From a virus: a stretch of DNA of 64,000 nt. Below are positions 15,501 through 57,878 of the stretch, one piece after another. The notes beneath the pieces were generated by a model. The model saw only the letters and a list, made by a program, of their open reading frames with translations, was not told the origin of the DNA and did not search any database. The stretch is taken from positions 1 to 64,000 of IMG/VR virus record IMGVR_UViG_3300017743_005089; one strand, written 5' to 3'. The position numbers and the translations under genes were made by a program. How positions within the stretch are numbered: the stretch's first letter is position 1; each line of letters starts with the position of its first letter.

Positions 15501-15855
15501 ATCAGATCCAGCAAAACAAATAATACATATTCCCACTATAGAGGTATCTAATAATAGATTAATATTTACCTGCGTTGTAGATGGGGTGAATTCTTATTTA
15601 TCTATAAATGGAGACTCTGAAAAAAAGTCTGGAGAACTAGAAGAATCTGGAATAATATTGGATGGATTTAATATAGGGTCATCTTCAGCAAATATAAGGG
15701 GATTGCACGGAAAAATAGGAGAAATTATACTCGTTGAAGAAGTAGTAAGTCAAGAATTACTAAAGAAAGCAGAAGGTTATTTGGCTCACAAATGGTTAGC
15801 TTTAGAGAGCTTACCTGAAAATCATCCGTACAAGAAAGTTTATCCAGAAGTTTAA
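12580..15855 (+). CDS. Tail-tip associated structural protein with C-terminal LamG-like domain
   Basis: 1091 residues, beta-rich and full of Tyr, Gly and Ser, with recurring NTGESY / NTGQSY motifs around 340-380. The C-terminal 250 residues form a concanavalin/LamG-like domain (LWFDSSDQNTIF ... WDSKSS ... LHGKIGEIIL) ending in AEGYLAHKW and LPENHPYKK, a tail seen on LamG-type domains of secreted bacterial proteins. The start ATG overlaps the last base of the I-J stop, so the two are coupled and probably assembled together. The likely role is a tip-attached receptor or glycan-binding protein; the large middle is not assignable. It ends at a convergent junction with the leftward operon, overlapping it by four bases. 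Confidence 0.65.
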   Translation: MSFSNSSQVVVPLSDPYKKYGKTFRVSNLYLTSSGKPQVLSKLKDSSDQRSHFVQEFQNDYLNISWEIIDPKNDIIYSDQSRIEQNPYISGFNVDIYENFGEATGDIGIEYGTKILSETGISGNSFSYQITGEKNIRNYSIELTLVDFTGNRNSALLTTINPEPTFSILSTGFEDGFFTCNYSGTTGENGGDTSNGLTGLGLYNFTGLFNSRFPGVEESERSLISRDGFAQIELTPGVENYVMAVPFDSYNSGTHGGFTKNSQPMLINYNPELNQISGYRISGGDAFRYVFETNYNTGSDLMSTCYGVTGDGKTSEPVFGYQGSIFLDSGVLFDQEYEGYNTGESYILDNSLSIQDGFNTGQSYLRTVSTGIGESGYERYGEGAGEYWGEYCPKYISYSITGENQTSLEKVYNYGYFDSYDKKFKCLSKLSLGGGIGDGFNYGIYSMPVDQPNSYDIQYHSGEMFNQSYELASSYLSSMDRMPAVILNNSQLNKIKNMGYGNGFIGLRRNKVGLITATFSEKFSNESFLNDLDLQSESSRDIEFTNTTGGVEYSRLVVNDVGENWCWVNGDGSHIYKYAGSGYEKSRNTFFSTNIKRYDGDIIFESGLNVSAPLVEINNVTGISGQLEIIFEYSFKDDFFYQNPYTIDEVENYNIKSINLHTGSMYNFDISEDNLHKTYPGTVSLRNESTIETIQSGVDFRFENHSEPPTFFKFMPFDAIGSGIETNVNKIIAENQGIPEDTPINLIKDDQITIVNLNGMRAAGQNYMTVNFEFQHSEDPVITFGISYEGDQSMMSYLGAMIVGHPNRKSASFVFTEVPPHDGFYLYVRSASGEIETREYNFSPWNPSYNLGVIPLWFDSSDQNTIFLENGKVSRWDSKSSASYLEQIDENQRPVITTVGQFEMVDFSNSTNINMDETLISQSAPTALVLLVDINLLNGDEIFDFFDSHENSQTKFTLTYNAVNNAFALRTKSGSDPAKQIIHIPTIEVSNNRLIFTCVVDGVNSYLSINGDSEKKSGELEESGIILDGFNIGSSSANIRGLHGKIGEIILVEEVVSQELLKKAEGYLAHKWLALESLPENHPYKKVYPEV

Positions 15856-16676
15856 ACTATGTAACTGATTAATATTTTTGTATCCTTGATGGATATATTT
15901 TCCCAATCTTTCCAATCTTCTATTTCTGGATTTTGGTAAATGCCTTCTTTTTTATCCCTCCATAAGTTTTTAATGAATGGTTTGAAGTCTTTGAATGTTT
16001 CTATTCCTAATACAGATTTAGCTCTGTTTTTTAAAGTGGTATGAGGGCTAAAGGGATCTCCTTTTGTTCCAGAAGTAGAGGTTGAGTTAGAGAATGAACC
16101 AGTGTTAGATTTATCCATTTCATCATCTCCAACAATATGTACGTTTAAGAAATTTCTCACACACCTAACGAAAGATCTGTTACAAGCTATTGTTTCCAAG
16201 AATTTAGTTGCAAAACTACTAGTGTTTTTAGTGCTGGCATTAGCCATGTCTTGGAATGAAACTTCTGAACTTCCTGTTTCATAATTTGGAATAAATGAAA
16301 CCTTACATGTAACTGCAACGTGATCATCTTCACATTTATCCATTGAGTAAGAAACTGAAGAGAACCCCCTTAGTCTAGCTAACTCTTTTATGCCGCTAAG
16401 CTTTATTAATAGCTGATGGTCTTTTAAGCCATCTATCGATCTAGGCATATCTTTATTTCTAGCTTCAAACCAGGCTTTATTTGGGAATAGATGCTCTTCT
16501 TTTATCATGGCTCTCCAATTCACTGAACCGTCTTCATTAAATGTGTATTGTATATTTTTTAGTAATCCATTTTCATCTCTATTAAAAAGAGATGGACCCA
16601 TAGAGTTATCCACCTTAACGTCTGATATAGTTACTGAGTTATCCGAAGAGGAGCTACTTTTTTTTGCTTTGACCAT
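15852..16676 (-). CDS. Conserved phage protein, possibly a single-strand annealing protein
   Basis: 274 residues. The N-terminus is low complexity, followed by NWRAMIKEEHLFPNKAWFE and a core ending FLETIACNRSFVRCVRNF (about 159-176) and VHIVGDDE. An Ala/Cys-Asn-Arg-x-Phe-Val-Arg-x-Val-Arg-Asn-Phe block of this kind is shared by marine phage proteins, and its layout recalls Rad52/Erf-type annealing proteins, in which a helix with basic residues follows a beta-sheet. That assignment is a pattern-level guess. It is the last gene of the operon that also carries ssb, which fits a recombination role. It overlaps the upstream glycosyltransferase gene by 23 bases. Confidence 0.45.
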   Translation of the reverse strand: MVKAKKSSSSSDNSVTISDVKVDNSMGPSLFNRDENGLLKNIQYTFNEDGSVNWRAMIKEEHLFPNKAWFEARNKDMPRSIDGLKDHQLLIKLSGIKELARLRGFSSVSYSMDKCEDDHVAVTCKVSFIPNYETGSSEVSFQDMANASTKNTSSFATKFLETIACNRSFVRCVRNFLNVHIVGDDEMDKSNTGSFSNSTSTSGTKGDPFSPHTTLKNRAKSVLGIETFKDFKPFIKNLWRDKKEGIYQNPEIEDWKDWENISIKDTKILISYIV

Positions 16677-17838
16677 GATTGTATATGTTTAGATGTTCTA
16701 CTTCTTCCCAAAAGTACTCACTATCGATAACTTTTTCGGGTTGCGAAGTTTTTTCGAAACCTTTTTCCCAAGCGGCTTTGCTGGAGTATTCTTTGTTATT
16801 TGATAGTAGTACTTTATTGCTTTGATAGAACGTATTATCACACACTTCAACACAAAAGTCAAGATCTTTTTTTTGCTTTGGAATAAAGTCATCTATATCT
16901 CTGTCAAAAAACTTAAATCTAATTTTATCTATTTTAGACAAGTCTTTGCAGATTAACATATAATTAATATTTAACAAATCTAGTCCTTCGAAATATTTTT
17001 CATCAAAACAATCGTCATCCATAAATATAGTCATACCAACAATGTTTGATTTAAACTGAGTTATAATATTTAAATCTATTTTTTTATTAATTAATAAATT
17101 TACTTTGTAGTTTAACCAAGGTAGAAAGAATTCTTCTTTTATCTCTAGGTCACACCTTAAGTTAATTATCTTTTTTGGGCTAAAATCTGGACTAGGCTTA
17201 AAATTAGGTATAGCTTCTATTATTTCTTGAGAATAAAAATTACCAATATTTAAAGTTTTATAAAGATTAAAGTCATGCTTTATTTCGAGCAAATCTAAGA
17301 CTGAAGCGCAGACTTCCTCTGGCTTTATTTCATTCACTCTTTTTGGAGATTCATTATCAGAGAAAGAAGCTTTGATTTTACTGTAGTCAACACTTATTAA
17401 TTTTGTTTCAGATTTTTTATTCCATACAGGCTTAGAGCATTCTGGATAAAGATTTGAATACAATGAAACAATCTTCTTGTCGTATAAGCTGGCTAGGTGA
17501 ACTGGTAAACTGTCTATCCCTAAATGTAGTTCAGCATTCTCTATGATGTAAGCCATTTGCTTAAAAGTACATTCTGGATAGTGAAAGTCACAAGCATCTA
17601 GGACGGGGTCATCCTTTCCACCTATTTGAACGATATCTATATTTAACTTAGATAGGTGAGGTTTTATTAAGTTTAAAACTGTAAACCAATAATCATAATG
17701 TCTTGCTGGTGATTTCTTGTCGTTCGTATGAAATGTTATAAATTTTTCAGACTTAACGGGAAAGAAGTGGTTCTTGAAAATTGGTTGCCCGATTTTGACT
17801 CCAAGTGATTTAGCGTACTCTTCTACTATATGACTCAT
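16654..17838 (-). CDS. C-terminal half of a split GT9 (heptosyltransferase-type) protein plus extra domain
   Basis: 394 residues. Residues 1-165 match only the second Rossmann half of GT9 enzymes: an FITFHTNDKKSPARHYDYW segment, then the nucleotide-sugar site AELHLGIDSLPVHLASL (102-118) and IVSLYSNLYPEC. The N-terminal Rossmann half is absent here but is present at the C-terminus of the product of 18233-20143. The opening HIVEEYAKSLGV is what normally follows the first half in intact GT9 proteins. About 230 further residues (after 165) are unassigned. The ATG overlaps the stop of the DUF6165 gene by four bases. It may complement the other half as a heterodimer; activity is not proven. Confidence 0.7.
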   Translation of the reverse strand: MSHIVEEYAKSLGVKIGQPIFKNHFFPVKSEKFITFHTNDKKSPARHYDYWFTVLNLIKPHLSKLNIDIVQIGGKDDPVLDACDFHYPECTFKQMAYIIENAELHLGIDSLPVHLASLYDKKIVSLYSNLYPECSKPVWNKKSETKLISVDYSKIKASFSDNESPKRVNEIKPEEVCASVLDLLEIKHDFNLYKTLNIGNFYSQEIIEAIPNFKPSPDFSPKKIINLRCDLEIKEEFFLPWLNYKVNLLINKKIDLNIITQFKSNIVGMTIFMDDDCFDEKYFEGLDLLNINYMLICKDLSKIDKIRFKFFDRDIDDFIPKQKKDLDFCVEVCDNTFYQSNKVLLSNNKEYSSKAAWEKGFEKTSQPEKVIDSEYFWEEVEHLNIYNHGQSKKK

Positions 17839-18236
17839 TGACCTACTGTATAATATTTTTGCTCTTCTATTTTTGAGCTAGTTATTTTGTTTATTTTATT
17901 TTTTATAAAAAATCTTTTATCGTTTTCTTTATATACTGATATAGATAAATCTATAAATTTCTGATCTAATTCTCCCGATTTTTCCTTCACTCTTTGTAGT
18001 TCTAAAATGTCCCAGAGGCTACTATTAACCTCAGTGATTTCAATAAGCATTTGTTTTAATTCGGGATGGGAAGAAATTAAGTCTTCACACATGGGTTTTA
18101 ATAATTTGTGTTCATTTTTTATATGAAAAAGTTTAGATGTATCTTTTATTTTGTTTTTTTTAACATCTAAGACTGACACTCTATCAAAAAGGTCTCCAAC
18201 CGACACAGGTATGGATATCATTCCATTATCATTCAT
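17835..18236 (-). CDS. DUF6165 family protein
   Basis: 133 residues with the DUF6165 pattern: ISIPVSVGDLFDRVSVLDVKK at the N-terminus, LIEITEVNSSLWDILE in the middle, then FIDLSISVYKENDKRFFIKNKIN. In bacterial genomes this family occurs beside GT9 and other envelope-sugar genes, and its biochemical role is unknown. Here it lies precisely between the two halves of a GT9 enzyme, with four-base ATGA overlaps on both sides, so the three proteins should be made in similar amounts. It may bind or scaffold the split transferase; this is inference. Confidence 0.75.
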   Translation of the reverse strand: MNDNGMISIPVSVGDLFDRVSVLDVKKNKIKDTSKLFHIKNEHKLLKPMCEDLISSHPELKQMLIEITEVNSSLWDILELQRVKEKSGELDQKFIDLSISVYKENDKRFFIKNKINKITSSKIEEQKYYTVGQ

Positions 18237-20143
18237 GGCATTAAATCGAAAGCATTTTTATCTTTTCCATTATGGCTGAAAGATAATATTTTTTGTGTTC
18301 CAATGTGAGGAAGGTAGGCAATCTCAAAATAACCCTTGTGATCAACCCTGCCCTCAAGAAAGGTTAGGCTGTCTAGTCCTGGACTATACGGAAGTACCCT
18401 GTGGACATTTTCGTTATCTTCTATCATTGGGTAAAATTTTGGCTTAGTTATAAAATATATATCATGCTCTGGGTATAGCTCCTTTAAGTTTGAGATTAAA
18501 GAGTTAGCCCATAGTACATCTCCTGCAGACTCAGGCATAACGACGGCAATCCTTCCTTCTGGAGAATCTCCATCTAGATAGTCTTCGAGGCTCGTAGCGC
18601 CTGATTTACCATTTTCTTTTTGAGCAACATCTTTGAAGTATTTAAGGATTTCACCCCTTGTTTTTCCTTGAGATATTTCGTTCATCCAATATTTATGGCC
18701 TTCGTTCGAGCTTGGATCGATATCCATATTTAATATATTTTTATATATATCAATTAACCAGTAGGAGTCAGATTCGATATGTGGAGGATTATAGTCGGGG
18801 TTTTTTTCCGCCTCCTTAAAATCAAAATCACAATTGTGATCTGGCATGTCGTCGATAATTTTTTCTAGTTTTTTACCAACGACATCTAGTGAAAAATTAT
18901 CCACAACAAATTGCCTACCTTTTTTACCCATATTGGATTTTTTTTGAGGCTTCATTTTGAATACTTTAGATAATTGTTTAGCTATACTAAATGGAGAGGT
19001 GCTCGCTTTTATAAATTGAGTGCCATGCTCTCTGTACTCAGACCAATCAAGCGGAAATGAACCTGATTCTGGAGTTGAAGTATCTTCCCCGCAACTATAA
19101 TTAGTCACAAGCGTAATAAGTTCAGTGAGTTTAGCTTCTTGTATAGGTATTTCTTGACCACCAGAAGTAAATGGGTGACAATAGACATCCATTAAATTAT
19201 ATATTTCATTTAATTGATTTTCGGAAACCCCATGTTTTACATTTGTGGTATTTTGAGACTTTGATGACCCGCAAAACTTACAATCTTGTTCTTGACCCGA
19301 AAAGGGTTTTATTTCATATTTCTTACAATGATTACAAAAGTACGTGGTTAAGATTTTAGAGTTATCTATCTCTTTTTCTTTTAACAGTCTAGGTATCTCC
19401 CAGCCTTCTCCCCAGTGGGTATGCAGTAAAAGTTTAGCATTACTACTTGGATTGTCTTCCGTAAACTTCTTGAAGCCATCTAATAGATTAGGAACACTTT
19501 TCCTTAGCTGATTCCTAAAAACAAAACCAATAATAAAAGCATTAGAATCTATGAAATATCTTTTCCTTAAGCTGGATCTTTCGTTATCTTTCAACCTGTA
19601 AAAACTTTTACAATCAACGCTACCTCTTAGCGTTCCAACATGTTCGTGGCCTAGTTTGTTTAAGGCTCTTTCGGCGAAGCTTGCCCAGACATAATAGTTT
19701 TTAATATGAGGCGCAGCTTCCACGGCTAAAGGTAGGATAGGCTCAGAATCCAAAGTAGTCCATATCATGCAATTTATATTGTTCCACCATTTTCTTTCCC
19801 AGAATTTATTAAAGCCCCATATATCTTCGGCGCCAATATAAACATCAGGTTTATACTCTTTTATTATCTCATCTATAGTTTCAGAGCCATAACCAGCAGA
19901 TCTATTCAAGTTAGGGTCTTTTTTAATTTGCTCAAGTTTCGCCCTATCTTCTGGAAGTGTTCCAACACATTTCCAAGGCAATTTAGATAAATTTGGAGAG
20001 TTTTTTACAAAACCATTGCATGCTTCAATTATTTCATACTTATCTGTTTTATACAAATAGGAAAGAATGTTTTTGCAATTTTTACCAAAACCAGTAAAAG
20101 CCTTACTGTGATTACTATGAAATAATACTTTTTTTTTGGACAT
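18233..20143 (-). CDS. GT4-type glycosyltransferase with zinc ribbon, DUF4214 and GT9 N-half
   Basis: 636 residues, four parts. Residues 1-430 form a GT-B/GT4 enzyme (KVLFHSNHSKAFTGFGKN; C-terminal nucleotide-sugar motif GGQEIPIQEAKL). A zinc ribbon CNHC ... CKFC (about 270-292) is inserted in the catalytic fold. Residues about 455-510 are a DUF4214-like module (SYWLIDIYKNILNMDIDPSS ... HKYWMNEI). Residues 531-636 are the first Rossmann half of a GT9 enzyme (RIAVVMPESAGDVLWANSLI ... YFEIAYLPHIGTQK), ending at HNGKDKNAFDLMP, where intact GT9 proteins continue. A GTG at 20155 is in frame, but the ATG at 20143 makes a TAATG junction with the previous stop and is preferred. Confidence 0.75.
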   Translation of the reverse strand: MSKKKVLFHSNHSKAFTGFGKNCKNILSYLYKTDKYEIIEACNGFVKNSPNLSKLPWKCVGTLPEDRAKLEQIKKDPNLNRSAGYGSETIDEIIKEYKPDVYIGAEDIWGFNKFWERKWWNNINCMIWTTLDSEPILPLAVEAAPHIKNYYVWASFAERALNKLGHEHVGTLRGSVDCKSFYRLKDNERSSLRKRYFIDSNAFIIGFVFRNQLRKSVPNLLDGFKKFTEDNPSSNAKLLLHTHWGEGWEIPRLLKEKEIDNSKILTTYFCNHCKKYEIKPFSGQEQDCKFCGSSKSQNTTNVKHGVSENQLNEIYNLMDVYCHPFTSGGQEIPIQEAKLTELITLVTNYSCGEDTSTPESGSFPLDWSEYREHGTQFIKASTSPFSIAKQLSKVFKMKPQKKSNMGKKGRQFVVDNFSLDVVGKKLEKIIDDMPDHNCDFDFKEAEKNPDYNPPHIESDSYWLIDIYKNILNMDIDPSSNEGHKYWMNEISQGKTRGEILKYFKDVAQKENGKSGATSLEDYLDGDSPEGRIAVVMPESAGDVLWANSLISNLKELYPEHDIYFITKPKFYPMIEDNENVHRVLPYSPGLDSLTFLEGRVDHKGYFEIAYLPHIGTQKILSFSHNGKDKNAFDLMP

Positions 20144-20712
20144 TATATAGGGCACTCAGAATCGCTAGATTCGTTCCTGGACTTAGAGAATGATTCTTTA
20201 TTTTTATTTATTCTAAATTCGTATACTTTATTAAGTATGACTTGTAGAAAGTTAGAAAGACATTCTGCTTCGCCTGGCTCAAGGGAGCATTTAAAGGTGC
20301 TACCCCCGTTCTTGATTATTGTAAGACCAAAAGCTGGCAAAATCTGAGGCTCTTCAATATACTTTTTTGTTTTAGGGTCAAACTTAGAGACCTTGGACTC
20401 TTTATCCCATGGAGTAAATTTTATAGTAGTTTTATTACCTTCAAATTGATGAAAAGTATCGTAGGCAAACCTATTCTTCACGGCATTAACTATTGACCCA
20501 CATTCAAACTCGTTAAATTTTAAAGTTATGTTTTTTTCAGGATCTTCTTTGTTGGCTATAAAAGTACCTCTCCTTGATTTGTCATCCCAGGAATGCTGCA
20601 TTATCGCCGATACAAAAAGTATAGGCTCTCCACTATTTTTGTCGTTTCCCATTGAAAAGCTGAAGCCGAATCCACTATTGTATTTGTTTGGTTTATATAA
20701 TTGTAAGCTCAT
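20143..20712 (-). CDS. Conserved phage protein, possible ssDNA-binding fold
   Basis: 189 residues, no family identified with certainty. The start SLQLYKPNKYNSGFGFSFS, then ILFVSAIMQHSWDDKSRRGT and ITLKFNEFECGSIVNAVKNR, show alternating beta strands with a basic/aromatic surface. This texture recalls whirly/PUR-type single-strand binding proteins of phages, but that is only a suggestion. It lies in the operon between the FmdB-like gene and the GT4 fusion, downstream of the perfect sigma70 promoter at 21110-21138. The C-terminus is a charged, serine-rich tail. Confidence 0.4.
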   Translation of the reverse strand: MSLQLYKPNKYNSGFGFSFSMGNDKNSGEPILFVSAIMQHSWDDKSRRGTFIANKEDPEKNITLKFNEFECGSIVNAVKNRFAYDTFHQFEGNKTTIKFTPWDKESKVSKFDPKTKKYIEEPQILPAFGLTIIKNGGSTFKCSLEPGEAECLSNFLQVILNKVYEFRINKNKESFSKSRNESSDSECPI

Positions 20713-27187: not shown

Positions 27188-28294
27188 ATGCCAAAAAAAA
27201 AATGCATATTATTGATCGCCCACAATACTGCGCTTAAATCCTATTTAGAGATTTTCCAGGAGATAGGCGTTGGTTGCTATTTTCAACCTTCATGCGAATG
27301 CCCAAAAGAAGAATCCAGTAAGAATATAGATCCTAAATTCTTAGTTATAGATAAAGATTTAGATAGGTTTGACCTATACAAAGATAATCACGATGAAAAA
27401 GATCTCGATGAAATAAAAAGAATCGTAGTTAATAAAGGTTACGATTTTTTAATATCATATCATTGGCCACCTTTTTCTTTAAATAAGTGCTTTATAGATT
27501 CAGGAATTAATTGTTTTTTTTTAATATGGGGTGGGCCAGAAAAAGATTTATTTCATGGTTATAAATACGGCAAGAATAAATTAATGCACAAACTCATAAC
27601 CTCTTCCAATAATTCTCAATATTTATTATGCCATAGCTACTTAAGTCGCCTTTTTAAAGGAGACGCACTTGTAGAGAGTTTAAAAACTTTAAACATACCT
27701 CATTCGTTCAGCGAAAAAACAAACAGTACTTGGCTTAAAACTGATCAAGAAAATTATGTTTTAATTGTTTGCAGTAGGTTGAATAATAAAAACGGTGTAA
27801 AAAATTTAAATTTACTTAAATCTATTTTCAAAACTTGCCATGATGTAAATTTTGTTTTATGTGGAAAAGGTAATAGTGGCTTAAAATTAGGTGGCAATGT
27901 TGAAGTATTTGATGCTCCAGAAGCATCCGACGTTCTCGTCAAAATGCAAAAAGCCAAACTTTTTTTATATTTTCAAGCCGTTTTTTATCCTTTTTTATCT
28001 GGACAAATACTTCAGTATTCCCCCATTGAGGCCTCCATGGTTGGATTGCCTATTTTACACTGTTCATCTAATCCAATAAACGCTATTATAGAAACCCCTG
28101 ACAGCCATAATTTTAAGGTTTCGTGGGGGGATGAGGTTTATTTTAACTACAGCGAAATTCATTCTAAGATAAAAAGAATCCTATCCCTACCCAAAAGAAA
28201 AGTTTTAAAAGAATTTTCCTACCAAAAACAATTATCGGACAATTATTCTATTGAATTTCTAAAAGATTCTTATAAAAGTTTTTTTCTTTCATGA
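27188..28294 (+). CDS. GT-B glycosyltransferase (GT4-like)
   Basis: 368 residues. The N-terminal half (CILLIAHNTALKSYLEIF ... YDFLISYHWPPF) and C-terminal half (YVLIVCSRLNNKNGVKNLNLL, FVLCGKG, then QYSPIEASMVGLPILHCSSN) have GT-B form; SPIEASMVGLPI is the E-A-x-x-x-G-x-P nucleotide-sugar motif. No Shine-Dalgarno sequence or clear promoter is seen in the 27-base gap after gmd. It overlaps the next gene by four bases. Confidence 0.7.
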   Translation: MPKKKCILLIAHNTALKSYLEIFQEIGVGCYFQPSCECPKEESSKNIDPKFLVIDKDLDRFDLYKDNHDEKDLDEIKRIVVNKGYDFLISYHWPPFSLNKCFIDSGINCFFLIWGGPEKDLFHGYKYGKNKLMHKLITSSNNSQYLLCHSYLSRLFKGDALVESLKTLNIPHSFSEKTNSTWLKTDQENYVLIVCSRLNNKNGVKNLNLLKSIFKTCHDVNFVLCGKGNSGLKLGGNVEVFDAPEASDVLVKMQKAKLFLYFQAVFYPFLSGQILQYSPIEASMVGLPILHCSSNPINAIIETPDSHNFKVSWGDEVYFNYSEIHSKIKRILSLPKRKVLKEFSYQKQLSDNYSIEFLKDSYKSFFLS

Positions 28295-29154
28295 ATATTC
28301 TTATCGTAAATATGGGTAATAACGGTGATGTACTCAATAGTACCCCGATAGCCTTTCATTTTAAAAATTTCAAAAAGCCTAACAGGGTGGATTTTTTAAC
28401 GAAAATTAAATATAAGAATTTATTAGAAAACAACCCAAGCATAGATAATGTTCTAGATACTGGTTTAGAGCTAGAAGACTCTCCACCCAAATACCACTCA
28501 CATACAATACAGCATGAATTAGATTCGTACATTGATACATCTAAATATAAAAAAATATTCTTCTCAGCGCCATACATGTCTCAAGACTACAATGATGGCT
28601 TTTCAGATAAATCTTTATTACAACTCACAAAGGGGGTTGTTAAAAGGTGGCGTTGTAAATTCTTACCCCAAGTTAAACTAAGCCCAAGCGAAGAGTTAGA
28701 GGCACAAATTTTCTTTGCTAAACTAAAAGGTTGCTATAAGGTGTTAGTAGAGTATGAATTTGAATCCAATCAAAGTTCTTTTAATTATCAATATATGAAT
28801 CATATATGTAATCATTTTCAGAAAAAAAATATTGACATCATATTAACTAGCAAAAATAAGCCCGAGTTTATGGAAGTGTTAGAACAACACTATGATGATA
28901 TAAATTTTTACCATTACAGCAATTCCTTTATGTCCAATGCTAAATTGTATAATTTAGTTGATTTATTTGTAGGATGTTCCTCTGGTTTGACCTGCTTAAC
29001 TTCCAGTAATTATTGTGATTCAAACAAAAAACGAATAGAAGTTTGTAATGGGCCTCACTGGTCAACCAAACTTTGGAGTCACAACTCAAAAAACAAAGAC
29101 ATATGCTACAATTTAGAATCATTCAAACAATCGATAAACAACATAACAATATAA
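28291..29154 (+). CDS. GT9-like glycosyltransferase
   Basis: 287 residues. The start MNILIVNMGNNGDVLNSTPIA matches the GT9 (ADP-heptose transferase type) N-terminal Rossmann loop, followed by DFLTKIKYKNLLENNPSID. The C-terminal site is LVDLFVGCSSGLTCLTSSN, where GT9 enzymes have a small-residue GxxS motif. Shorter than typical GT9 (about 320-350). It is followed by a DUF4254-like gene, a pairing also seen in bacterial envelope sugar clusters. Confidence 0.75.
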   Translation: MNILIVNMGNNGDVLNSTPIAFHFKNFKKPNRVDFLTKIKYKNLLENNPSIDNVLDTGLELEDSPPKYHSHTIQHELDSYIDTSKYKKIFFSAPYMSQDYNDGFSDKSLLQLTKGVVKRWRCKFLPQVKLSPSEELEAQIFFAKLKGCYKVLVEYEFESNQSSFNYQYMNHICNHFQKKNIDIILTSKNKPEFMEVLEQHYDDINFYHYSNSFMSNAKLYNLVDLFVGCSSGLTCLTSSNYCDSNKKRIEVCNGPHWSTKLWSHNSKNKDICYNLESFKQSINNITI

Positions 29155-41177: not shown

Positions 41178-42025
41178 AAAACGTAGTTTATATAATAAAT
41201 AATCTCCCATCGGACACCGATTTCGCGAACCCTGGTTACAAAAATGTAGCATGGGTCCCTCACTGCTTAAAGTCCTTGGAATCCTATTGTGATAAAATTA
41301 ACGCAGATCTAAAGATCATATCCTCTAAAGATTTTCCAGCCTTTGCAGAGATAAATGATTACAATTTTAGCTTTTATCAAAAAAGCACTTTCATAAAGGT
41401 TTTAATGCTTCATGAATTCATGAAGACGGATTATGATAAATTTGCGCTTCTCGACCTGGACATGGTTGTAAGCAAGGATGCTGAAGATATTTTTGAAAGA
41501 TACAAGGATGACCATTTTGTAATGCAGTATGGATTCAATGAAGCCGTAGTAAAAAAGAATGAAATATTTCTAAAGCAGTATTTAAAATCAATCCCTGCTG
41601 ATGAATCTGTATACAGGTACAATGAAAAAACAAAAAGAAACATGCCTAAGTACAATTTAAACTTAGGATGCTATATAATGAGTAAAAAAATTGTTAGCAA
41701 GTTGACTAAAGTATTACCAGACCAGTATAGTTTCGTCTCTTTCTTAAAGGATAACAATTTAATAGACAACCCCGTGTTAGAAGTTTTCGGAGAAAGAAAA
41801 GATTTTATAGATCAAGATTTATACGGTTTCGCTTATTCAAAAACAGACGCCCTAGATTACCACAAGCCCATGGATTGGGTTTGGAATGCAAACTATCAGG
41901 CCTGCTTCCAAAAAGGAGATCAAAACAAAGATTTCAACCTGTGTCACCTTTGCGGCGAAGACGGCAAGCAGTTTCTTTTAGATAATTTAAATAACCCAGA
42001 AGTTATTTCTAGAATCGATGTATAG
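41174..42025 (+). CDS. GT-A glycosyltransferase with DLD motif
   Basis: 283 residues. KNVVYIINNLPSD opens the fold; KFALLDLDMVVSKDAEDIF (about 91-109) carries the metal-binding DLD; NLNLGCYIMSKKIVSKL is the acceptor loop typical of GT8-like enzymes. The C-terminus has HLCGEDGKQFLLD. Donor not predictable. It overlaps the following sulfotransferase gene by eight bases, suggesting that sugar transfer and sulfation are coupled. Confidence 0.7.
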   Translation: MKNVVYIINNLPSDTDFANPGYKNVAWVPHCLKSLESYCDKINADLKIISSKDFPAFAEINDYNFSFYQKSTFIKVLMLHEFMKTDYDKFALLDLDMVVSKDAEDIFERYKDDHFVMQYGFNEAVVKKNEIFLKQYLKSIPADESVYRYNEKTKRNMPKYNLNLGCYIMSKKIVSKLTKVLPDQYSFVSFLKDNNLIDNPVLEVFGERKDFIDQDLYGFAYSKTDALDYHKPMDWVWNANYQACFQKGDQNKDFNLCHLCGEDGKQFLLDNLNNPEVISRIDV

Positions 42026-42704
42026 CCACAAACATAAATTCATATACGTACATATACCCAAGTCTGCAGGCACCTTTGTAAAACATTATTTGCTTTCAAA
42101 TATAGATTCTAACTATGAAAGTAATCAGAACCAACAGGACTATGATGATAAATACTGCGTTACCTGCGAAAGACCCCTATCATCTATAGTAAAAGAAATT
42201 CCAAATCACAAAGATTATTTTAAATTTACAGTTGTGAGAAATCCTTTTGATAGGGTCGTTTCAATGTTTTGTTACCTAGGGGGCTGGAAGTTTGACTATT
42301 TTGTCGAAAATAATATAGACTCTCCAATGATGCCCTACGTACAAGAATTCCACAAGTACTATATGTCTAATGATTTTGATGGTTTCATAGACTGCGCCTA
42401 CAAAGAAGGTCTCATTAAAAAATTTCATACTGGTTATTTCGAAAACTACATAGATAGAATAAGCGTTGAGGGAAAAATATGCATCAATAAATACTATAAG
42501 ATGGAAAAGATTAAACTTTGCATTTCTGATTTGCGCAAAACTTTTAAGTTTAAAAGCAAAAAAGGGTTTACAGATTGGAGGCAGAATAGTAGCTCAGAAT
42601 ATAAAAAAATAAAAAAATATAAGGACTACTACTCCCAATACAGTCGAGACTTTGTAGAAAATCATTTCGGCAGAGATTTGGATTATTTTGGCTATGGATT
42701 CTAA
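42018..42704 (+). CDS. Carbohydrate sulfotransferase (1 of 5)
   Basis: 228 residues. The 5'-phosphosulfate loop is FIYVHIPKSAGTFVKHYLL and the 3'-phosphate site is TVVRNPFDRVVSMF, the two PAPS-binding motifs of the Sulfotransfer_2 family. It would transfer sulfate from PAPS to a sugar hydroxyl. The opening MYSHKHKFIYVHIPK resembles those of the proteins at 44379 and 46532, so these are paralogues. No PAPS synthesis genes are in the window. Confidence 0.88.
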   Translation: MYSHKHKFIYVHIPKSAGTFVKHYLLSNIDSNYESNQNQQDYDDKYCVTCERPLSSIVKEIPNHKDYFKFTVVRNPFDRVVSMFCYLGGWKFDYFVENNIDSPMMPYVQEFHKYYMSNDFDGFIDCAYKEGLIKKFHTGYFENYIDRISVEGKICINKYYKMEKIKLCISDLRKTFKFKSKKGFTDWRQNSSSEYKKIKKYKDYYSQYSRDFVENHFGRDLDYFGYGF

Positions 42705-43494
42705 GTTTGTAATATTTGGCCAAGAAAGAGCTGGAACGACTAGTTTAATCTCAGCATTAAACAAGAATGATCGGATTGTCCATGAACCAATATCTTCTCT
42801 AACTGGTGATTTAGAACACAATCCTAGATATGCTAAAATAATTCAAGAGCATAAAATGGACCCCAATACTTTGCCTTATTCTAAAAACATACCTTATTTT
42901 AATAAATTTAATAATATCGCAGAAGACAAAGATAAGCTTTGGAGTTTTTTAGACTCCCTATTTTCTACCTTCGATGGAGTTAAGCACGTATGGTGCACTT
43001 CCTCAGAAGAAGGTAATGAAAATTTTCTTTATTATTGCCAGGCTCATGGAATTAAAATTATATTTCAATATAGAGAAAGCGCTTTTTACCCTGCAGTTTC
43101 CTGGCAATTAGCTAACCAAGTTCAAGTTTGGCAACTCGGAGAAAACAAAGAGTATAAAAGTACAGTCGACTCTTTTGATTATAAAGAACTTGAAGAACCA
43201 CCCATAAAACGAAGGGTGGCTTGGTACAAAAAATACATCCCTTACTATCACTCCTTATTACCACCTGATTCTTTTACTTCTAAATACGAAGATCTTTATG
43301 GTTTGGAAAGTTATACAGAAAGGTTGAATAGATTTAACGATATAATTTATTACCTTGACGTTGAGGTTGACATTAGTAACGTAGAAAATTTTTTATCTAC
43401 AGATAGGAGGGTTTTTGGCAAAAAAGCTTACAATAAAATACCTAATTACCAAGAAATGTTTGAAAGATACGGTCAAGAAAAAATTAAATTATGA
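42694..43494 (+). CDS. Sulfotransferase-family P-loop protein (2 of 5)
   Basis: 266 residues with a PAPS-type loop KFVIFGQERAGTTSLISAL and a second site IIFQYRESAFYPAVSWQLA in the position of the R-x6-S 3'-phosphate motif. It is more distant from the other four. The ATG at 42694 is preferred to the in-frame TTG at 42688; it overlaps the end of the previous sulfotransferase. It is probably another sulfotransferase with a different acceptor. Confidence 0.72.
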   Translation: MDSKFVIFGQERAGTTSLISALNKNDRIVHEPISSLTGDLEHNPRYAKIIQEHKMDPNTLPYSKNIPYFNKFNNIAEDKDKLWSFLDSLFSTFDGVKHVWCTSSEEGNENFLYYCQAHGIKIIFQYRESAFYPAVSWQLANQVQVWQLGENKEYKSTVDSFDYKELEEPPIKRRVAWYKKYIPYYHSLLPPDSFTSKYEDLYGLESYTERLNRFNDIIYYLDVEVDISNVENFLSTDRRVFGKKAYNKIPNYQEMFERYGQEKIKL

Positions 43495-44378
43495 ATAATT
43501 ATTACTATTTTTCTCGCGATACTGGTTGGGGTGACACTTTATGGCACCTTACTAATGCCTTGATGTATTGCGAGCAGAATAATAAAGGAATACTTATTGA
43601 TATGCGCGGACATTGGGCAAGTAAAGGTAATAGTAATTTATTTGGTGAATATTTTCTCAGTATAGACACAGATATAGAAGTTATAATAAATGAAGAATGT
43701 ATAGATCAGCTCAAAAAAGATGCTGAACAACATTCTGACTCTAGATTAGTAATAAAAAACCCACTTAAATCCAAAGAAGATTCTAAAAAATTTTATGATA
43801 CATTTAATAGAATTAGCGTTCACGGGACTATCGCCAAAGAAATAGATGAGATACGCAAAAAATATTTCGCAGGAAATTATATAGTTGGAATTCATGCTAG
43901 AACATCAAACGGAGAAGTTTTACCATCAAAAACTGGAAACTCAAATCGTTTTCAGGGGGAAAGAAATGCAATACAAACTATTTTTGACGTATATAAAGAA
44001 AAAATAGATCATGTATTATTTGATTCGCCTCGTGCATTCTTAAAATCTTGTGACAACTATAAGTTTTTTGTTGCCACAGATTCAAAACAATTTGTTGATT
44101 TGTTTAAAAAAGAATACGGCAACACAATCGTAACCGAAAGATACTTCGCTCCTCCAGGTTGCGGCACTGGCCACGAAAAAGGGGATCAGTCTACAGATTT
44201 ACAAATTCAGATGGAAGAAAAATACGGACGCATAAACATAGCTAAAGAAGCGTTGGTTGATTTCTACTTACTACAGTATACAAATTTTCTATTTAAAAAC
44301 TTTAGTAGATTTAATGAGTTTTGTTTGTACAAGGGTATACCAAATTTCCATATTAACTTTCAGCAAAAATGTTATTAA
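43491..44378 (+). CDS. Fucosyltransferase-like protein (GT23/NodZ type)
   Basis: 295 residues. GWGDTLWHLTNAL at the N-terminus, the GDP-fucose site YIVGIHARTSNGE (H-x-R) and YKFFVATDSKQFVDLF are arranged as in alpha-1,6-fucosyltransferases and NodZ. GDP-L-fucose is available from gmd and fcl of this phage. The first 19 bases of the gene recur at 47125 as part of a scar. It is flanked by sulfotransferase genes on both sides. Confidence 0.65.
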   Translation: MNNYYYFSRDTGWGDTLWHLTNALMYCEQNNKGILIDMRGHWASKGNSNLFGEYFLSIDTDIEVIINEECIDQLKKDAEQHSDSRLVIKNPLKSKEDSKKFYDTFNRISVHGTIAKEIDEIRKKYFAGNYIVGIHARTSNGEVLPSKTGNSNRFQGERNAIQTIFDVYKEKIDHVLFDSPRAFLKSCDNYKFFVATDSKQFVDLFKKEYGNTIVTERYFAPPGCGTGHEKGDQSTDLQIQMEEKYGRINIAKEALVDFYLLQYTNFLFKNFSRFNEFCLYKGIPNFHINFQQKCY

Positions 44379-45017
44379 ATGATTAGCCATAAACACAAAT
44401 GTATATTTTTACATATCCCAAAAGTAGCAGGCACATCTGTTGAAAGGTTTTTGCGAAATGTTGACCCAAATATACCAGCAAAAGTTTTAAGGAAGCGAGG
44501 CTTTTCTCATTTTTTAAATGACTATTTAGATTATTATGTATTTTCATTTGTCCGCAACCCATATGACCGTTTAGTTTCTGCTTGGAAATGGGGGCAACTT
44601 AAATTTGGGAAAGAAGGCGACTTGCCTTTTTACAACAAAGAACGTGCGGTATCATTCCAAGAATATGTTTTATTAACTACCGACTTTGGATATCGAAAAG
44701 ACAATCAAAACTTATGGAGTGAATACGACGAATATCATACATTGCCTCAATTTAAATTTTTTCCTAATTTAAACGGAGGTCATTATTTTACAGATAAAAT
44801 TAATCCTAATTTTACTTGTAATTTCATTGGGCGCTTTGAAAATTTACACGAAGATTTTAATAAGGTTTGCCCTAATATAGGGACAAAGGAATTTAAACTT
44901 CCCCATGCATACAACTCAAAAACTTTCAAAAAAACTTTTGACTGGACTGATTCATTAAAAGATAAAGTTCATAATTATTATAAAAAAGATTTTGAATTAT
45001 TTAATTATGACAAATGA
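44379..45017 (+). CDS. Carbohydrate sulfotransferase (3 of 5)
   Basis: 212 residues. PAPS loop CIFLHIPKVAGTSVERFL and 3'-phosphate site FSFVRNPYDRLVSAW. The start follows the TAA of the fucosyltransferase-like gene without a gap, suggesting that the two act on the same product. It has the same MxSHKHK opening as the protein at 42018. Complete by length and motifs. Confidence 0.88.
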   Translation: MISHKHKCIFLHIPKVAGTSVERFLRNVDPNIPAKVLRKRGFSHFLNDYLDYYVFSFVRNPYDRLVSAWKWGQLKFGKEGDLPFYNKERAVSFQEYVLLTTDFGYRKDNQNLWSEYDEYHTLPQFKFFPNLNGGHYFTDKINPNFTCNFIGRFENLHEDFNKVCPNIGTKEFKLPHAYNSKTFKKTFDWTDSLKDKVHNYYKKDFELFNYDK

Positions 45018-45901
45018 AATTTTGTATATTTACTCATTTATTTTTTAGACCCAATCTTTTTCACTTTGAAGAATGGCTAAAGTATCATATTGATTTTGGC
45101 GTAGATCATTTTTATTTTTATGAAAGTTCTCATGCAGGTATTCCCTGCTTACAAAGAGATACTAAACGAGATATAGATATCTCTATGGTTGGAGATATAC
45201 CTTACAAAGAAATTTATCGACACTTTGATAAAATAAGGGAAAAATACAATAATTACTGTACTTTTATTAAATGGTTGCCCAAGGATAAAAACGGCAATTA
45301 TCTAGAGCATGATCAAATTAATGCTTATGAACAGGTTACCGCTTTTGACCACTTCTATAAAAATTACGCTAAAAAACATGACAGAGTATCAACTATAGAT
45401 TGTGACGAATTTTATTATAGCGAAAAATACGACAATATAAAAAGCTTTGTCGCCCAAAACCAACAAAATATTTTGTTATTAGGTTGTAAATTTTTTGAAT
45501 CTGTATTCATCAACGTCGGCGGCCTAGTAACACAAAAAACAAAGTGCCTAGATAAATTCTCAAGGGTTGGCTCTAAGTATATATTTAATCCTAAAAACGC
45601 AAACTTAATATACAATCATTCACCTCATTTTCCGCCCGCTAAAAACAAAACTAGTGTAAATATAAACCAAGAAGAACTTTGCTTATATCATTATAAAGTT
45701 AATAAAAATGCAAAAATTTCAATAGAGCACCACGGTAAACAAAAAATGGAGTACACAGAAGACAAATCAATTAGCGAAAAAGCTTTATACTTAAAAGATT
45801 ACAACTTTATAGAAAAGCCAAAAATACAACAAAAGTTTATTGATTCAAAACAAGATATATTGGGATTAGGTTCATTTAAATGGGATGAAATACAAAATTA
45901 A
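45014..45901 (+). CDS. GT92-like glycosyltransferase
   Basis: 295 residues. FHFEEWLKYHIDFGVDHFYFYE matches the conserved NE..EWL.YH...G..HFY.Y opening of GT92 (DUF23) enzymes, followed by RVSTIDCDEFYY as the DxDE metal site and the late HYKVNKNAKISIE segment. GT92 members often add galactose to fucose or glucose in animals and plants; the donor here is not established. It overlaps the sulfotransferase gene upstream (four bases) and the GT32 gene downstream (17 bases). Confidence 0.75.
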   Translation: MKFCIFTHLFFRPNLFHFEEWLKYHIDFGVDHFYFYESSHAGIPCLQRDTKRDIDISMVGDIPYKEIYRHFDKIREKYNNYCTFIKWLPKDKNGNYLEHDQINAYEQVTAFDHFYKNYAKKHDRVSTIDCDEFYYSEKYDNIKSFVAQNQQNILLLGCKFFESVFINVGGLVTQKTKCLDKFSRVGSKYIFNPKNANLIYNHSPHFPPAKNKTSVNINQEELCLYHYKVNKNAKISIEHHGKQKMEYTEDKSISEKALYLKDYNFIEKPKIQQKFIDSKQDILGLGSFKWDEIQN

Positions 45902-46535
45902 AATACCGAAAGTTATTCATCAGATTTATATTGGCGAAAAACGAATTCCAGATCAACAATTAATATGGCAGCGAACCTGGAAAGATTATAACCCTGGATG
46001 GCAATTTATTTTTTGGGATGACGCAAAATTAAAAAATATAGGCTTTATTAATAAAGACGCATTTAAATATTGCAAAAGCATAGCTTCAAAAGTTGATTTA
46101 ATAAGGTATGAAATTATTTATAAATTTGGAGGCCTTTATATTGATACAGACTTTGAATGTCTAAAAAGTATCGATTCATTTTTTCATGATAAAGATTTTA
46201 TTGCATGCCGCCAAAACCCAAGTGGACCGACGATTGCTAATGGTTTTATTGCCGCTACCCCTCAACACCGAATTATCGAAAAATTAATCAATGATACTCC
46301 AAAAAGATGCGTTACTCATAAATCAAAAGGTTGCGTAGAAAAGTTCGGGCCACGTTTTCTTACCGATGTTATAGATGAAATCTACGGTTCAGAATTTAAA
46401 TATTCCAAAAATTTTGATCCAAAAAATATTTACCCTTATATGTGGACAAAAAGACATAGCCTTAATGATGACTTTAAAAAGATTTACCCTGAATCATATG
46501 CAGTCCATCATTGGTCTAAAAGCTGGCAAAAATGA
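45885..46535 (+). CDS. GT32 glycosyltransferase (DxD sugar transferase)
   Basis: 216 residues. IPKVIHQIYIGEKRIPDQQ at the N-terminus, FIFWDD, and IIYKFGGLYIDTDFECLKSID (about 77-97) with the DTD metal site are diagnostic of the GT32/OCH1-like family (Gly_transf_sug). It ends HHWSKSW, also a family feature. GT32 enzymes use GDP-mannose, UDP-galactose or UDP-glucose. It overlaps the next sulfotransferase gene by four bases. Confidence 0.87.
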   Translation: MKYKIKIPKVIHQIYIGEKRIPDQQLIWQRTWKDYNPGWQFIFWDDAKLKNIGFINKDAFKYCKSIASKVDLIRYEIIYKFGGLYIDTDFECLKSIDSFFHDKDFIACRQNPSGPTIANGFIAATPQHRIIEKLINDTPKRCVTHKSKGCVEKFGPRFLTDVIDEIYGSEFKYSKNFDPKNIYPYMWTKRHSLNDDFKKIYPESYAVHHWSKSWQK

Positions 46536-47128
46536 TCGACCATAAAAACAAAATTATATTTGCACATATCCCAAAAACTGGCGGTACTAGTGTGGAAAAA
46601 TTATTTCCTGAAGGTTTTGGTCCTCAGCACCATCCGCTATCTTGGTTCAAAAAACAGCGCCCCCATATTTATAAAAAATATTTCAAGTTCTCCATATGCA
46701 GAAATCCTTATGACAAAATAGTTTCTGAATATTTTTGGCATGTGCATGATCCACTTAATCAATTCAAAGGTAGATTTCAATTTTTATCTTTTAATGAATT
46801 CGTTAAATTATTTTTTAAAATAGATGGTTCTTTTTTGGAATTTAAATACGATGGATGGTTTGAAATGCATTTTGAAACACACCGCATGCCTCAAACGTTT
46901 TTCTTAGATCCCGTTTCGGATTTAGATTTTATTATAAGATTTGAAAATTTCCAAGAAGACTTCGATATCGTCTGCGAAAAAATTGCAATCCCCCAACAAC
47001 AACTTCCACATCAAAACAAAACCAAACACAAATGCTATACCGAATACTACGACGACGAAACGCGAGAGATCGTCGCAAAAAAGTACGCAAAAGACATTGA
47101 GTATTTCGGATATGAGTTTGGGTCATGA
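46532..47128 (+). CDS. Carbohydrate sulfotransferase (4 of 5)
   Basis: 198 residues. PAPS loop IIFAHIPKTGGTSVEKLF and 3'-phosphate site FSICRNPYDKIVSEYF. The last 45 codons shift to C-ending and CGA-type codons unlike the AGA/AAA-rich remainder, and the gene ends exactly at the recombination scar at 47125, which hints at an imported 3' end. Confidence 0.87.
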   Translation: MIDHKNKIIFAHIPKTGGTSVEKLFPEGFGPQHHPLSWFKKQRPHIYKKYFKFSICRNPYDKIVSEYFWHVHDPLNQFKGRFQFLSFNEFVKLFFKIDGSFLEFKYDGWFEMHFETHRMPQTFFLDPVSDLDFIIRFENFQEDFDIVCEKIAIPQQQLPHQNKTKHKCYTEYYDDETREIVAKKYAKDIEYFGYEFGS

Positions 47129-47194
47129 ATAATTATTACTATTAAACCCCTTGATTATACTAATGTCGAATTCCTAGACAAGCCAAATTGGTAA
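47125..47194 (+). pseudogene. Gene-junction scar: start of one gene joined to the end of another
   Basis: The first 19 bases, ATGAATAATTATTACTATT, are identical to the start of the fucosyltransferase-like gene at 43491. They are followed at once by a stop codon. In another frame the remaining bases read IKPLDYTNVEFLDKPNW and a stop, a plausible gene end. The structure looks like what is left when a fucosyltransferase-like gene and its neighbour were deleted by recombination. Confidence 0.6.
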
Positions 47195-47195
47195 T

Positions 47196-47942
47196 ATGAA
47201 TCTTAAAATTATATCATTTTGCAATTATCCTTATAGAGAAATAGCTTTAAATTGGGTCAAACATTTAAAAGCTTTATCCATAGAAAATTATGAAGTATTG
47301 TGTTTAGATCCTGAGTCTGATGAATATTTAAAGTATTATGATTGCAACTCAAGGGTTCTCGATGAATTTAATGATGACTGGATTTCTGGATGTAAGCATA
47401 CAATGCGTCGCACTTTTATATTCAAAAAGTATTTAGAAGATGGTTTTGATATTATTCATTCAGATACCGATGCGCTTTGGCTTAAAAATCCAGTTCCTCA
47501 ATTAATAGAGTCTAATAACGAAGATGTTATTGTTTCAACCGTTCGTCATAGTGAAGCATTTCCGCCAGAAGTTCGTGAAGCTTTTGGATTTACATGCTGT
47601 ATGGGATGGATCTTTTTTAGAAGCAATCAAAAAACAATTAGCTACCTTGATAGGTTCTTAAACACTCGTGAGATCAAAGGGTCAGACCAGAAAAACTTCA
47701 ACCAATTTCTATTGCATAATCATCCTACAACTCAACCCCATAAGTTTGGTGATAGATTAATTATAGATAATGTCGCGGATCAGGATTACAACTACAACGA
47801 ACTATCTTTATTAGCTTTAAATAAACCACTAGTTAAGCGTGGACCAATAGAAGATGACACATATGTCTGGCACCCTAATACAAGAAAAGAAGCTCAGCAC
47901 AAAAAACAGTCATTCATAGATAGAAAAAAATGGCTTCTTTAG
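47196..47942 (+). CDS. GT77-like glycosyltransferase
   Basis: 248 residues. ALNWVKHLKALSIENYEVLCLD, then DIIHSDTDALWLKNPVPQL (about 88-106) with the DTD metal site, and FTCCMGWIFFRSN correspond to the nucleotide-diphospho-sugar transferase fold of GT77 (arabinosyl/xylosyl/galactosyltransferases). The C-terminus has VWHPN. It starts two bases after the scar and overlaps the next gene by 13 bases. Confidence 0.8.
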   Translation: MNLKIISFCNYPYREIALNWVKHLKALSIENYEVLCLDPESDEYLKYYDCNSRVLDEFNDDWISGCKHTMRRTFIFKKYLEDGFDIIHSDTDALWLKNPVPQLIESNNEDVIVSTVRHSEAFPPEVREAFGFTCCMGWIFFRSNQKTISYLDRFLNTREIKGSDQKNFNQFLLHNHPTTQPHKFGDRLIIDNVADQDYNYNELSLLALNKPLVKRGPIEDDTYVWHPNTRKEAQHKKQSFIDRKKWLL

Positions 47943-48622
47943 ATAGAAAAATAATAGCAGCATTAGTTTCTGTAAATTATTCTGATTTCCTGGAATTAGT
48001 TTTACCATTTAACACTAAAATATTTGACGCTATATATGTTATCACCGCAAAAGAAGATAAAAAATGTATAGATATATGTTCAAAATACGATAATGTAAAT
48101 TGCTTTATAGTTGAAAATCATATTGTAAAAAAACACGGCAACTTTAATAAAGGGGCAATCTTTAATAAATTTTTCGATTTTTTAAATGATCGAAATTTTA
48201 ATGATCTAATCTGCTTAACTGATTCTGATATCATTTTTCCACCTGAGTTTAAGTCTTTATTATGTAATCTAGAAGACCAAAACTTATACTCGCTGTCGAG
48301 GGCTTTCTGCCAAAACGAAAATCAATTCAATAGATATTCAGAGCATATTAAGTCAGGCAAATCTCATAATACAGGGATCGATAGAAGGGCTAGTCCAAAT
48401 CTAGCTGGAATCGGATATATGCAGCTTTTTAAATTTCGAAAAGATATTCGAATGTCTGAAGATTTTGGTCATGCTGGAAAATCAGACCACCTTTTTGTCT
48501 CCGAAAACTTTAAGCGAAAAGGTGGTGAATGCATTAATTTGAAAGAAGGCCAGTACTGCGTTCATTTAGGGGCAACAGGCACAAACTGGAAGGGAAGGCG
48601 CAGCAGAAAATGGAAAATTTAA
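47930..48622 (+). CDS. GT-A (GT2-like) glycosyltransferase
   Basis: 230 residues. IIAALVSVNYSDFLELVLP, the metal site LICLTDSDIIFPPEF (DSD) and a C-terminal acceptor stretch with GHAGKSDHLFVSENFKRKGG. It is compact and soluble with no membrane segment, unlike processive GT2 synthases. It overlaps both neighbours by 13 bases. Confidence 0.7.
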   Translation: MASLDRKIIAALVSVNYSDFLELVLPFNTKIFDAIYVITAKEDKKCIDICSKYDNVNCFIVENHIVKKHGNFNKGAIFNKFFDFLNDRNFNDLICLTDSDIIFPPEFKSLLCNLEDQNLYSLSRAFCQNENQFNRYSEHIKSGKSHNTGIDRRASPNLAGIGYMQLFKFRKDIRMSEDFGHAGKSDHLFVSENFKRKGGECINLKEGQYCVHLGATGTNWKGRRSRKWKI

Positions 48623-49083
48623 TATCACATCTTGAGGGCCCCAATAAACATATTATTAATTTAATAAAACTCAATGATGGGAAGGTTGTCAATTCAACAA
48701 GTAAATGGTTAAGTGATCGTTGGTTTTTACGAGAAACAAACTTTGAAAAAAACCTAACATGTGTCGAAATTAGCCCATTTAAGAGCTCAAAAGATTCGAA
48801 TGTTTTCGTTGGTAAGAAATACTTAAACCACAAAATACACAAATCTTTCCCCAAAACTCTTTTGAATATTGATTTTTTGTCAATACTTGGTCCCGATATA
48901 GCCTTAGAAACTCTATGTAAAATAAATTTTACAAAACAAAAGATTAAATATTTTTGTATAGCCATCAACCCAGTAAAAACAAAAGATTTTAAACAAAACA
49001 AAAAAGATATAGAATTATTTATGAAGGATAAGGCTAAATTTGTAAAACAAAATAGAACAGAGCTTTTGTATAGTGTAATATAA
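48610..49083 (+). CDS. Unknown protein in the sugar block
   Basis: 157 residues, no family recognised. It is basic, with helical C-terminal KNKKDIELFMKDKAKFVKQNR. The middle FPKTLLNIDFLSILGPDIALETL may be a strand-helix-strand unit. Translationally coupled to the GT2-like gene upstream (13-base overlap) and followed by the promoter box of the GHKL ATPase gene. Confidence 0.4.
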   Translation: MENLISHLEGPNKHIINLIKLNDGKVVNSTSKWLSDRWFLRETNFEKNLTCVEISPFKSSKDSNVFVGKKYLNHKIHKSFPKTLLNIDFLSILGPDIALETLCKINFTKQKIKYFCIAINPVKTKDFKQNKKDIELFMKDKAKFVKQNRTELLYSVI

Positions 49084-49084
49084 T
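49072..49084 (+). promoter_or_regulatory. AGTGTAATATAAT box upstream of the GHKL ATPase gene
   Basis: Exact consensus; the ATG is 17 bases from the first base of the box. No -35 element and no Shine-Dalgarno sequence are seen. Confidence 0.65.
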
Positions 49085-49088
49085 TACT

Positions 49089-53084: not shown

Positions 53085-53101
53085 CACTAACATAAAATAT
53101 A

Positions 53102-56744: not shown

Positions 56745-56745
56745 A

Positions 56746-57276: not shown

Positions 57277-57285
57277 GATTTCAAA

Positions 57286-57876: not shown

Positions 57877-57878
57877 AT

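What the first reader, a model, noticed from the sequence alone, without database searches (positions are those of the whole stretch)
16654..20143. A GT9 glycosyltransferase split exactly around a DUF6165 gene
The 18233-20143 product ends in the first Rossmann half of a GT9 enzyme (PESAGDVLWANSLI ... HNGKDKNAFDLMP). The 16654-17838 product begins with the second half (HIVEEYAKSLGV ... HLGIDSLPVHL). Between them, with ATGA overlaps on both sides, sits a complete DUF6165 gene. No sequence of the GT9 fold appears lost or duplicated. This looks like gene insertion into a coding sequence that left two coupled halves, possibly held together by the DUF6165 protein.
Basis: partly seen in the sequence, partly recalled or inferred. 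Interest (0 to 1): 0.8.

Follow-up and report, generated by a model that had tools for sequence, protein, structure and literature searches.

The report
Split GT9 glycosyltransferase in uncultivated phages
A large group of uncultivated phages makes a sugar-transferring enzyme (a heptosyltransferase-type GT9) as two separate, co-translated proteins that each carry half of the active site; a small gene of unknown function (DUF6165) sits between them in only some members, so it did not obviously cause the split, but it occurs only where the enzyme still looks active.

Summary
The 18233-20143 product ends in the N-terminal part of a GT9 enzyme, the 16654-17838 product begins with the rest, and DUF6165 lies between with ATGA overlaps on both sides. 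Joined in natural order, the halves align end to end with intact bacterial GT9s (296 vs 308 residues, hhalign E 5e-24; reversed order gains nothing). In 126 distinct related viral loci the GT9 is split at the same place and never found in one reading frame. Only 25 carry DUF6165; in most others the two genes overlap or abut directly, and three carry other small ORFs there. So the split does not depend on DUF6165, and DUF6165 cannot generally hold the halves together. The two catalytic motifs, one on each polypeptide, are kept or lost together (84 both, 17 neither, 2 discordant) while the fused GT4 domain stays intact, which points to one composite active site. All 22 dereplicated DUF6165-bearing loci keep both motifs; 17 of 81 without it do. 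Bacterial DUF6165 genes often adjoin or fuse to GT9-type domains. Best reading: an obligate two-chain GT4-GT9 enzyme, analogous to Alg13/Alg14, with DUF6165 as an optional accessory protein.

The parts
18824..20143 (-). GT4 domain of the GT4-GT9N fusion protein (residues about 1-440)
   Evidence: PHROG 2170 glycosyltransferase 1.5e-14; AF2 model matches GT4 structures, best 3oy2_A E 3.7e-18
18557..18796 (-). DUF4214-like linker (residues about 450-529); absent from one subgroup of relatives
   Evidence: PF13946 E 0.003, below cut-off; profile absent in the L090-L095 type
18236..18553 (-). GT9 N-terminal half (residues 531-636) with the GDVL motif; D542 matches catalytic D13 of E. coli HepI by motif
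   Evidence: profile A8 hits 3tov residues 9-67 and 1psw 2-56; hhalign to intact GT9 P 97.7, E 1.9e-12
18233..18236 (-). ATGA overlap: stop of GT4-GT9N and start of DUF6165
   Evidence: sequence
17835..18236 (-). DUF6165 gene (133 aa), accessory gene present in only some relatives
   Evidence: PF19662 8.7e-10; 25 of 126 relatives
17835..17838 (-). ATGA overlap: stop of DUF6165 and start of GT9C
   Evidence: sequence
17269..17838 (-). GT9 C-terminal half (residues 1-190) with the GIDSLPVH motif; D109 matches catalytic D261 of E. coli HepI by motif
   Evidence: PF01075 over cut-off; profile A9 hits 1psw 240-338 E 3.9e-6; AF2 model best Foldseek hits WaaC, WaaF, TibC; hhalign P 98.8
16657..17262 (-). 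extra alpha/beta C-terminal domain of the GT9C protein (residues about 193-394), function unknown
   Evidence: AF2 pLDDT about 90; conserved in relatives; no Pfam family
15852..16676 (-). downstream gene (274 aa) overlapping GT9C by 23 bases; kept next to GT9C in the relatives examined
   Evidence: no Pfam, PHROG or PDB match

Best explanation
The locus encodes a two-chain glycosyltransferase complex. One chain is a GT4 enzyme carrying the N-terminal half of a GT9 enzyme at its C-terminus. The other carries the GT9 C-terminal (nucleotide-sugar-binding) half plus an extra domain. The chains are made side by side by translational coupling and assemble into one GT9 active site, with the catalytic aspartate of the GD motif from one chain and that of the GxDSLPxH motif from the other, next to a GT4 active site, so two successive sugar transfers could be coupled. 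The split is old and fixed in this phage family. DUF6165 is an accessory protein at the junction in some lineages, retained only while the GT9 site is intact, and probably helps the GT9 enzyme or its glycan pathway. Shown: the split, its conservation, complementary tiling, joint decay of the motifs, and the DUF6165 correlation. Inferred: physical assembly, catalysis, the sugar and acceptor, and the DUF6165 mechanism.
For: Tiling: the N and C profiles hit complementary parts of the same two GT9 structures and of intact bacterial GT9s. Joined in natural order they align over the full length with score 168 against 81 and 107 apart, and 107 in swapped order. Structure: the C-half model (pLDDT 89.8) matches WaaC, WaaF and TibC over about 200 columns; the ends next to the split are low-confidence parts (GT9C residues 1-20, GT4-GT9N 616-636), as expected of a missing partner. 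One enzyme: on 103 dereplicated loci the N motif and C motif are both present in 84, both lost in 17, discordant in 2 (Fisher 3e-17), while the GT4 motif stays in 19 of 19 GT9-decayed loci. D13 and D261 are the residues whose mutation costs HepI over 2000-fold activity (PMC5713226). Adjacency: GT9C lies directly downstream of GT9N in 125 of 126 distinct loci, 97 of the 100 without DUF6165 having spacings of -14 to +32 bases. DUF6165: 22 of 22 carriers strictly intact against 17 of 81 non-carriers (Fisher 3e-12), all informative phylogenetic contrasts in the same direction; bacterial DUF6165 fused to GT9 (L118) or beside it (L105, L113, L117, L119, L130, L141); a second phage DUF6165 next to a GT9 gene in L069 and L072.
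Against: No complex was modelled or measured, since only single chains could be folded. Nineteen dereplicated lineages keep both genes with a decayed GT9 site, so the pair has a role beyond GT9 catalysis there. Phylogenetic contrasts on well-supported branches number only 4-5, too few for significance by themselves. The motif classes were defined by regular expression after looking at the data. DUF6165 is not exclusive to GT9: in cyanophage S-SRM01 it overlaps a GT2-methyltransferase gene.
Confidence: 0.8

Rival explanations
1. Insertional fission: DUF6165 inserted into a GT9 coding sequence in an ancestor, split it, and was later lost in most lineages, leaving directly abutting halves.
For: DUF6165 sits exactly at the split; cassette DUF6165s form one clade (support 96/77), consistent with one acquisition and repeated loss; L015 and L021 lie among carriers and lack it.
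Against: 101 of 126 relatives lack DUF6165 at the junction, including the rows at the midpoint root of the tree, and no unsplit member exists to show the before state. Other small ORFs also occupy the junction, so it looks like a general site for gene gain.
Confidence: 0.15
2. Not one enzyme: the N part is an independent binding domain of the GT4 protein and the C part an independent domain of the next protein, each with its own job.
For: Nineteen lineages keep both genes with decayed GT9 motifs; one contig keeps GT9N without GT9C (L084).
Against: Strict adjacency in 125 of 126 loci, joint motif decay (84/17/2), and full-length collinear alignment to intact GT9.
Confidence: 0.1
3. The halves are joined in the cell by programmed ribosomal frameshifting at the overlap, giving one GT4-GT9 polypeptide.
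For: Many loci have 4-base stop-start overlaps.
Against: With DUF6165 in between, a fused GT9 cannot form this way; overlaps vary (-14 to +32) and the frame offset differs between loci.
Confidence: 0.03
4. DUF6165 bridges the two halves as a structural third subunit.
For: Position, coupling and occurrence only with intact motifs; bacterial GT9-DUF6165 fusion L118.
Against: Intact split GT9s without DUF6165 exist (17 dereplicated loci).
Confidence: 0.3

Closest known systems
Alg13/Alg14 and EpsE/EpsF (GT-B enzymes of the GT1/GT28 group)
   Same: One GT-B glycosyltransferase divided into an acceptor-binding N-terminal protein and a nucleotide-sugar-binding C-terminal protein with the active site between them (PMC8993221)
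   Different: Different GT family (GT9 here); here the N half is fused to a second glycosyltransferase and the C half to an extra domain; phage genes; no membrane anchor was identified
GT9 heptosyltransferases WaaC (HepI), WaaF, TibC
   Same: Fold of the C half and sequence motifs of both halves; both catalytic aspartates present by motif
   Different: Those are single chains; donor sugar here is unknown
DUF6165 (PF19662) proteins of bacteria
   Same: The inserted gene is a member; several bacterial members adjoin or fuse to GT9 domains
   Different: The phage cassette members form a separate clade
Insertional fission of mitochondrial cox2 (PMC5374615)
   Same: A gene divided into two complementary products with other ORFs between
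   Different: Here the split is also found with nothing in between and in a whole family

Membership tests
GT9 (heptosyltransferase family) | Collinear similarity to intact GT9 over both lobes | tested here: met
   joined halves 4-308 of 308, P 99.6, E 5e-24
GT9 (heptosyltransferase family) | Catalytic aspartates equivalent to HepI D13 and D261 | tested here: met
   GDVL in the N half and GIDSLPVH in the C half; residue roles from PMC5713226
GT9 (heptosyltransferase family) | Pfam PF01075 over cut-off | tested here: met
   C half 24.8 bits against 22; the N half alone gives no Pfam GT9 hit
GT9 (heptosyltransferase family) | Sugar transfer activity from an ADP- or other nucleotide-sugar | not testable with these tools
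   needs biochemistry
Split GT-B enzymes (Alg13/Alg14 type) | N and C lobes on separate polypeptides | tested here: met
Split GT-B enzymes (Alg13/Alg14 type) | Heterodimer required for activity | not testable with these tools
   only indirect support from joint motif decay
Split GT-B enzymes (Alg13/Alg14 type) | Homology to the GT28/GT1 Alg13/14 group itself | tested here: not met
   best profile and fold matches are GT9; so it works like Alg13/14 but is not a member
DUF6165 (PF19662) | Pfam score over cut-off | tested here: met
   38.9 against 27 bits
Insertional gene fission | Unsplit ancestor or relative at the same locus | tested here: not met
   0 of 126 loci with both halves in one ORF

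The most novel reading that the evidence does not exclude
DUF6165 is a dedicated accessory subunit of GT9-type glycosyltransferases, so that this phage makes a three-protein GT4-GT9 machine from one coupled operon, and bacterial DUF6165 proteins do the same for their GT9 partners.
Probability: 0.35. Interest if true: 0.65.

Novelty: new variant of a known kind. Interest (0 to 1): 0.55.

Why it matters
Splitting of a GT-B enzyme into its two lobes is known for Alg13/Alg14 and EpsE/EpsF. This appears to be a second, independent case in the GT9 family, found here only in uncultivated phages (plus one bacterial MAG contig carrying the same cassette), with the N lobe tethered to another glycosyltransferase. 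It gives a natural split-enzyme series (with and without a cargo gene, active and decayed) and a first functional lead for DUF6165, on which no paper was found in the library searched.

Tried and rejected
Direct tblastn of the two halves against 50,697 phage records found nothing; divergent members gave only a GT4 match in cyanophage S-CBS4. Single-sequence PDB searches of the halves were uninformative; family profiles were needed. Single-protein scans of viral contigs gave 0 and 1 relatives; alignment-based scans gave up to 80. The N half by Pfam alone gave no GT9 hit in 30 members. Frameshift fusion was rejected because frames and overlaps vary and DUF6165 intervenes. Contig or assembly artefact was rejected because 126 distinct contigs agree. 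The neighbours at 15852-16676 and 20143-20712 could not be identified from solved structures. Literature: no paper in the library mentions DUF6165 or 'split glycosyltransferase'.

Full report
The window is part of an IMG/VR virus record of 100,970 bases with lambda-like tail genes, a ribonucleotide reductase and many sugar genes. On the minus strand three genes follow each other with 4-base ATGA overlaps: a 636-aa protein (18233-20143), DUF6165 (17835-18236) and a 394-aa protein (16654-17838). Pfam finds DUF6165 and, in the third, the C-terminal part of Glyco_transf_9. The first is a GT4 enzyme by PHROG and by structure comparison, followed by a DUF4214-like linker and about 106 residues that look like the start of a GT9.

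The halves belong to one fold. Profiles built from 30 relatives hit the same two solved GT9 chains in complementary places: the N half 3tov 9-67 (E 0.003) and 1psw 2-56 (E 0.06), the C half 1psw 240-338 (E 3.9e-6) and weakly 3tov 258-340. Against an alignment of intact bacterial GT9s the N half covers columns 4-61 and the C half 162-324. Joined in natural order they align to residues 4-308 of a 308-aa enzyme with score 168, against 81 and 107 separately; in swapped order the score stays at 107. The two halves show no similarity to each other. The C-half model (pLDDT 89.8) matches WaaC, WaaF and TibC over about 200 residues. The same phage also carries an unsplit GT9-like gene at 28291-29154.

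The split is a fixed property of a phage family, not an event in this genome. Scans of viral contigs gave 126 distinct loci with this GT9 N half. In none are both halves in one ORF; in 125 the C half follows directly. DUF6165 lies between in 25. In the other 100 with a C half the spacing is -14 to +32 bases in 97, most often -4 or -10. Two contigs hold a cupin-like ORF and one holds other small ORFs at the junction. Frame offsets differ between loci, and DUF6165 intervenes in some, so frameshift fusion is not a general solution.

Evidence that both chains form one active site comes from decay. In E. coli HepI the aspartates D13 and D261 are catalytic (PMC5713226); by motif their equivalents here are D542 of the first protein and D109 of the third. 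Over 103 dereplicated loci, both motifs are present in 84, both lost in 17, and only 2 are discordant; in all 19 decayed loci the GT4 motif is intact. Relatedness inflates the Fisher value, but the independent contrasts that differ all go the same way.

DUF6165 tracks this state. All 22 dereplicated carriers keep strict motifs, while 17 of 81 non-carriers do. Within the window's own clade the non-carriers L015, L021, L031, L033 and L034 all show changes in the GT9 motifs, in L033 only the proline of GxDSLPxH. Cassette DUF6165s form one clade apart from bacterial ones (support 96/77), so one acquisition with repeated loss fits. Of 26 dereplicated bacterial DUF6165 loci, seven have a GT9-family domain fused (L118) or adjacent (L105, L113, L117, L119, L130, L141), and L103 is a weak eighth. 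It is not exclusive: in cyanophage S-SRM01 DUF6165 overlaps a GT2-methyltransferase gene.

The best reading is an obligate two-chain GT4-GT9 enzyme with DUF6165 as an optional accessory. Its closest functional parallel is Alg13/Alg14, a GT-B enzyme of another family split into its two lobes (PMC8993221). Physical assembly, activity, donor sugar, acceptor and the DUF6165 mechanism are inferred, not shown.

Noticed in passing
window 28291-29154 (+): A 287-aa single-ORF GT9-like gene (NNGDVL start, GCSSG near the end) in the same phage: an unsplit GT9-type enzyme beside the split one.
   Followed up: partly
window about 19271-19336 (-), residues 270-291 of the GT4 protein: Four invariant cysteines (C270, C273, C288, C291) form a zinc-ribbon-like insertion in the GT4 domain, conserved in all 30 aligned relatives.
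   Followed up: no
window 42018-58448 (+): Long run of sugar-modifying genes with families common in eukaryotes: GT90, GT17, GT92, NodZ-like, galactosyltransferase, sulfotransferase.
   Followed up: no
L294 and L314, at the GT9N/GT9C junction; L265 likewise: Instead of DUF6165, a cupin-like ORF (L294, L314) or small unknown ORFs (L265) sit at the split point, so it is a recurrent site of gene gain.
   Followed up: partly
L069 12866-13246, L072 12903-13283: A second DUF6165 gene, outside the cassette clade, lies between a GT9 gene and a gene with a GT9-like start, in phages whose split GT9 is decayed.
   Followed up: partly
L118 3813-5372; L103 3495-5396: Bacterial proteins in which a TPR-GT9 type region is fused to a C-terminal DUF6165 domain.
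   Followed up: partly
L084 5992-7935: GT4-GT9N gene with no GT9C found in its 36.8-kb contig; the only such case seen.
   Followed up: partly
L096: The same cassette on a contig binned into a Flavobacteriaceae MAG, a weak hint at the host.
   Followed up: no
GT4-GT9 pairs with decayed GT9 motifs (L015, L064, L069, L074 and others): Both halves persist as coupled genes after loss of the catalytic motifs, suggesting a pseudoenzyme or structural role.
   Followed up: no
window 60099-61475 (+): Protein of 458 aa with at least five InlB-like B repeats (PF18998) in a phage genome.
   Followed up: no
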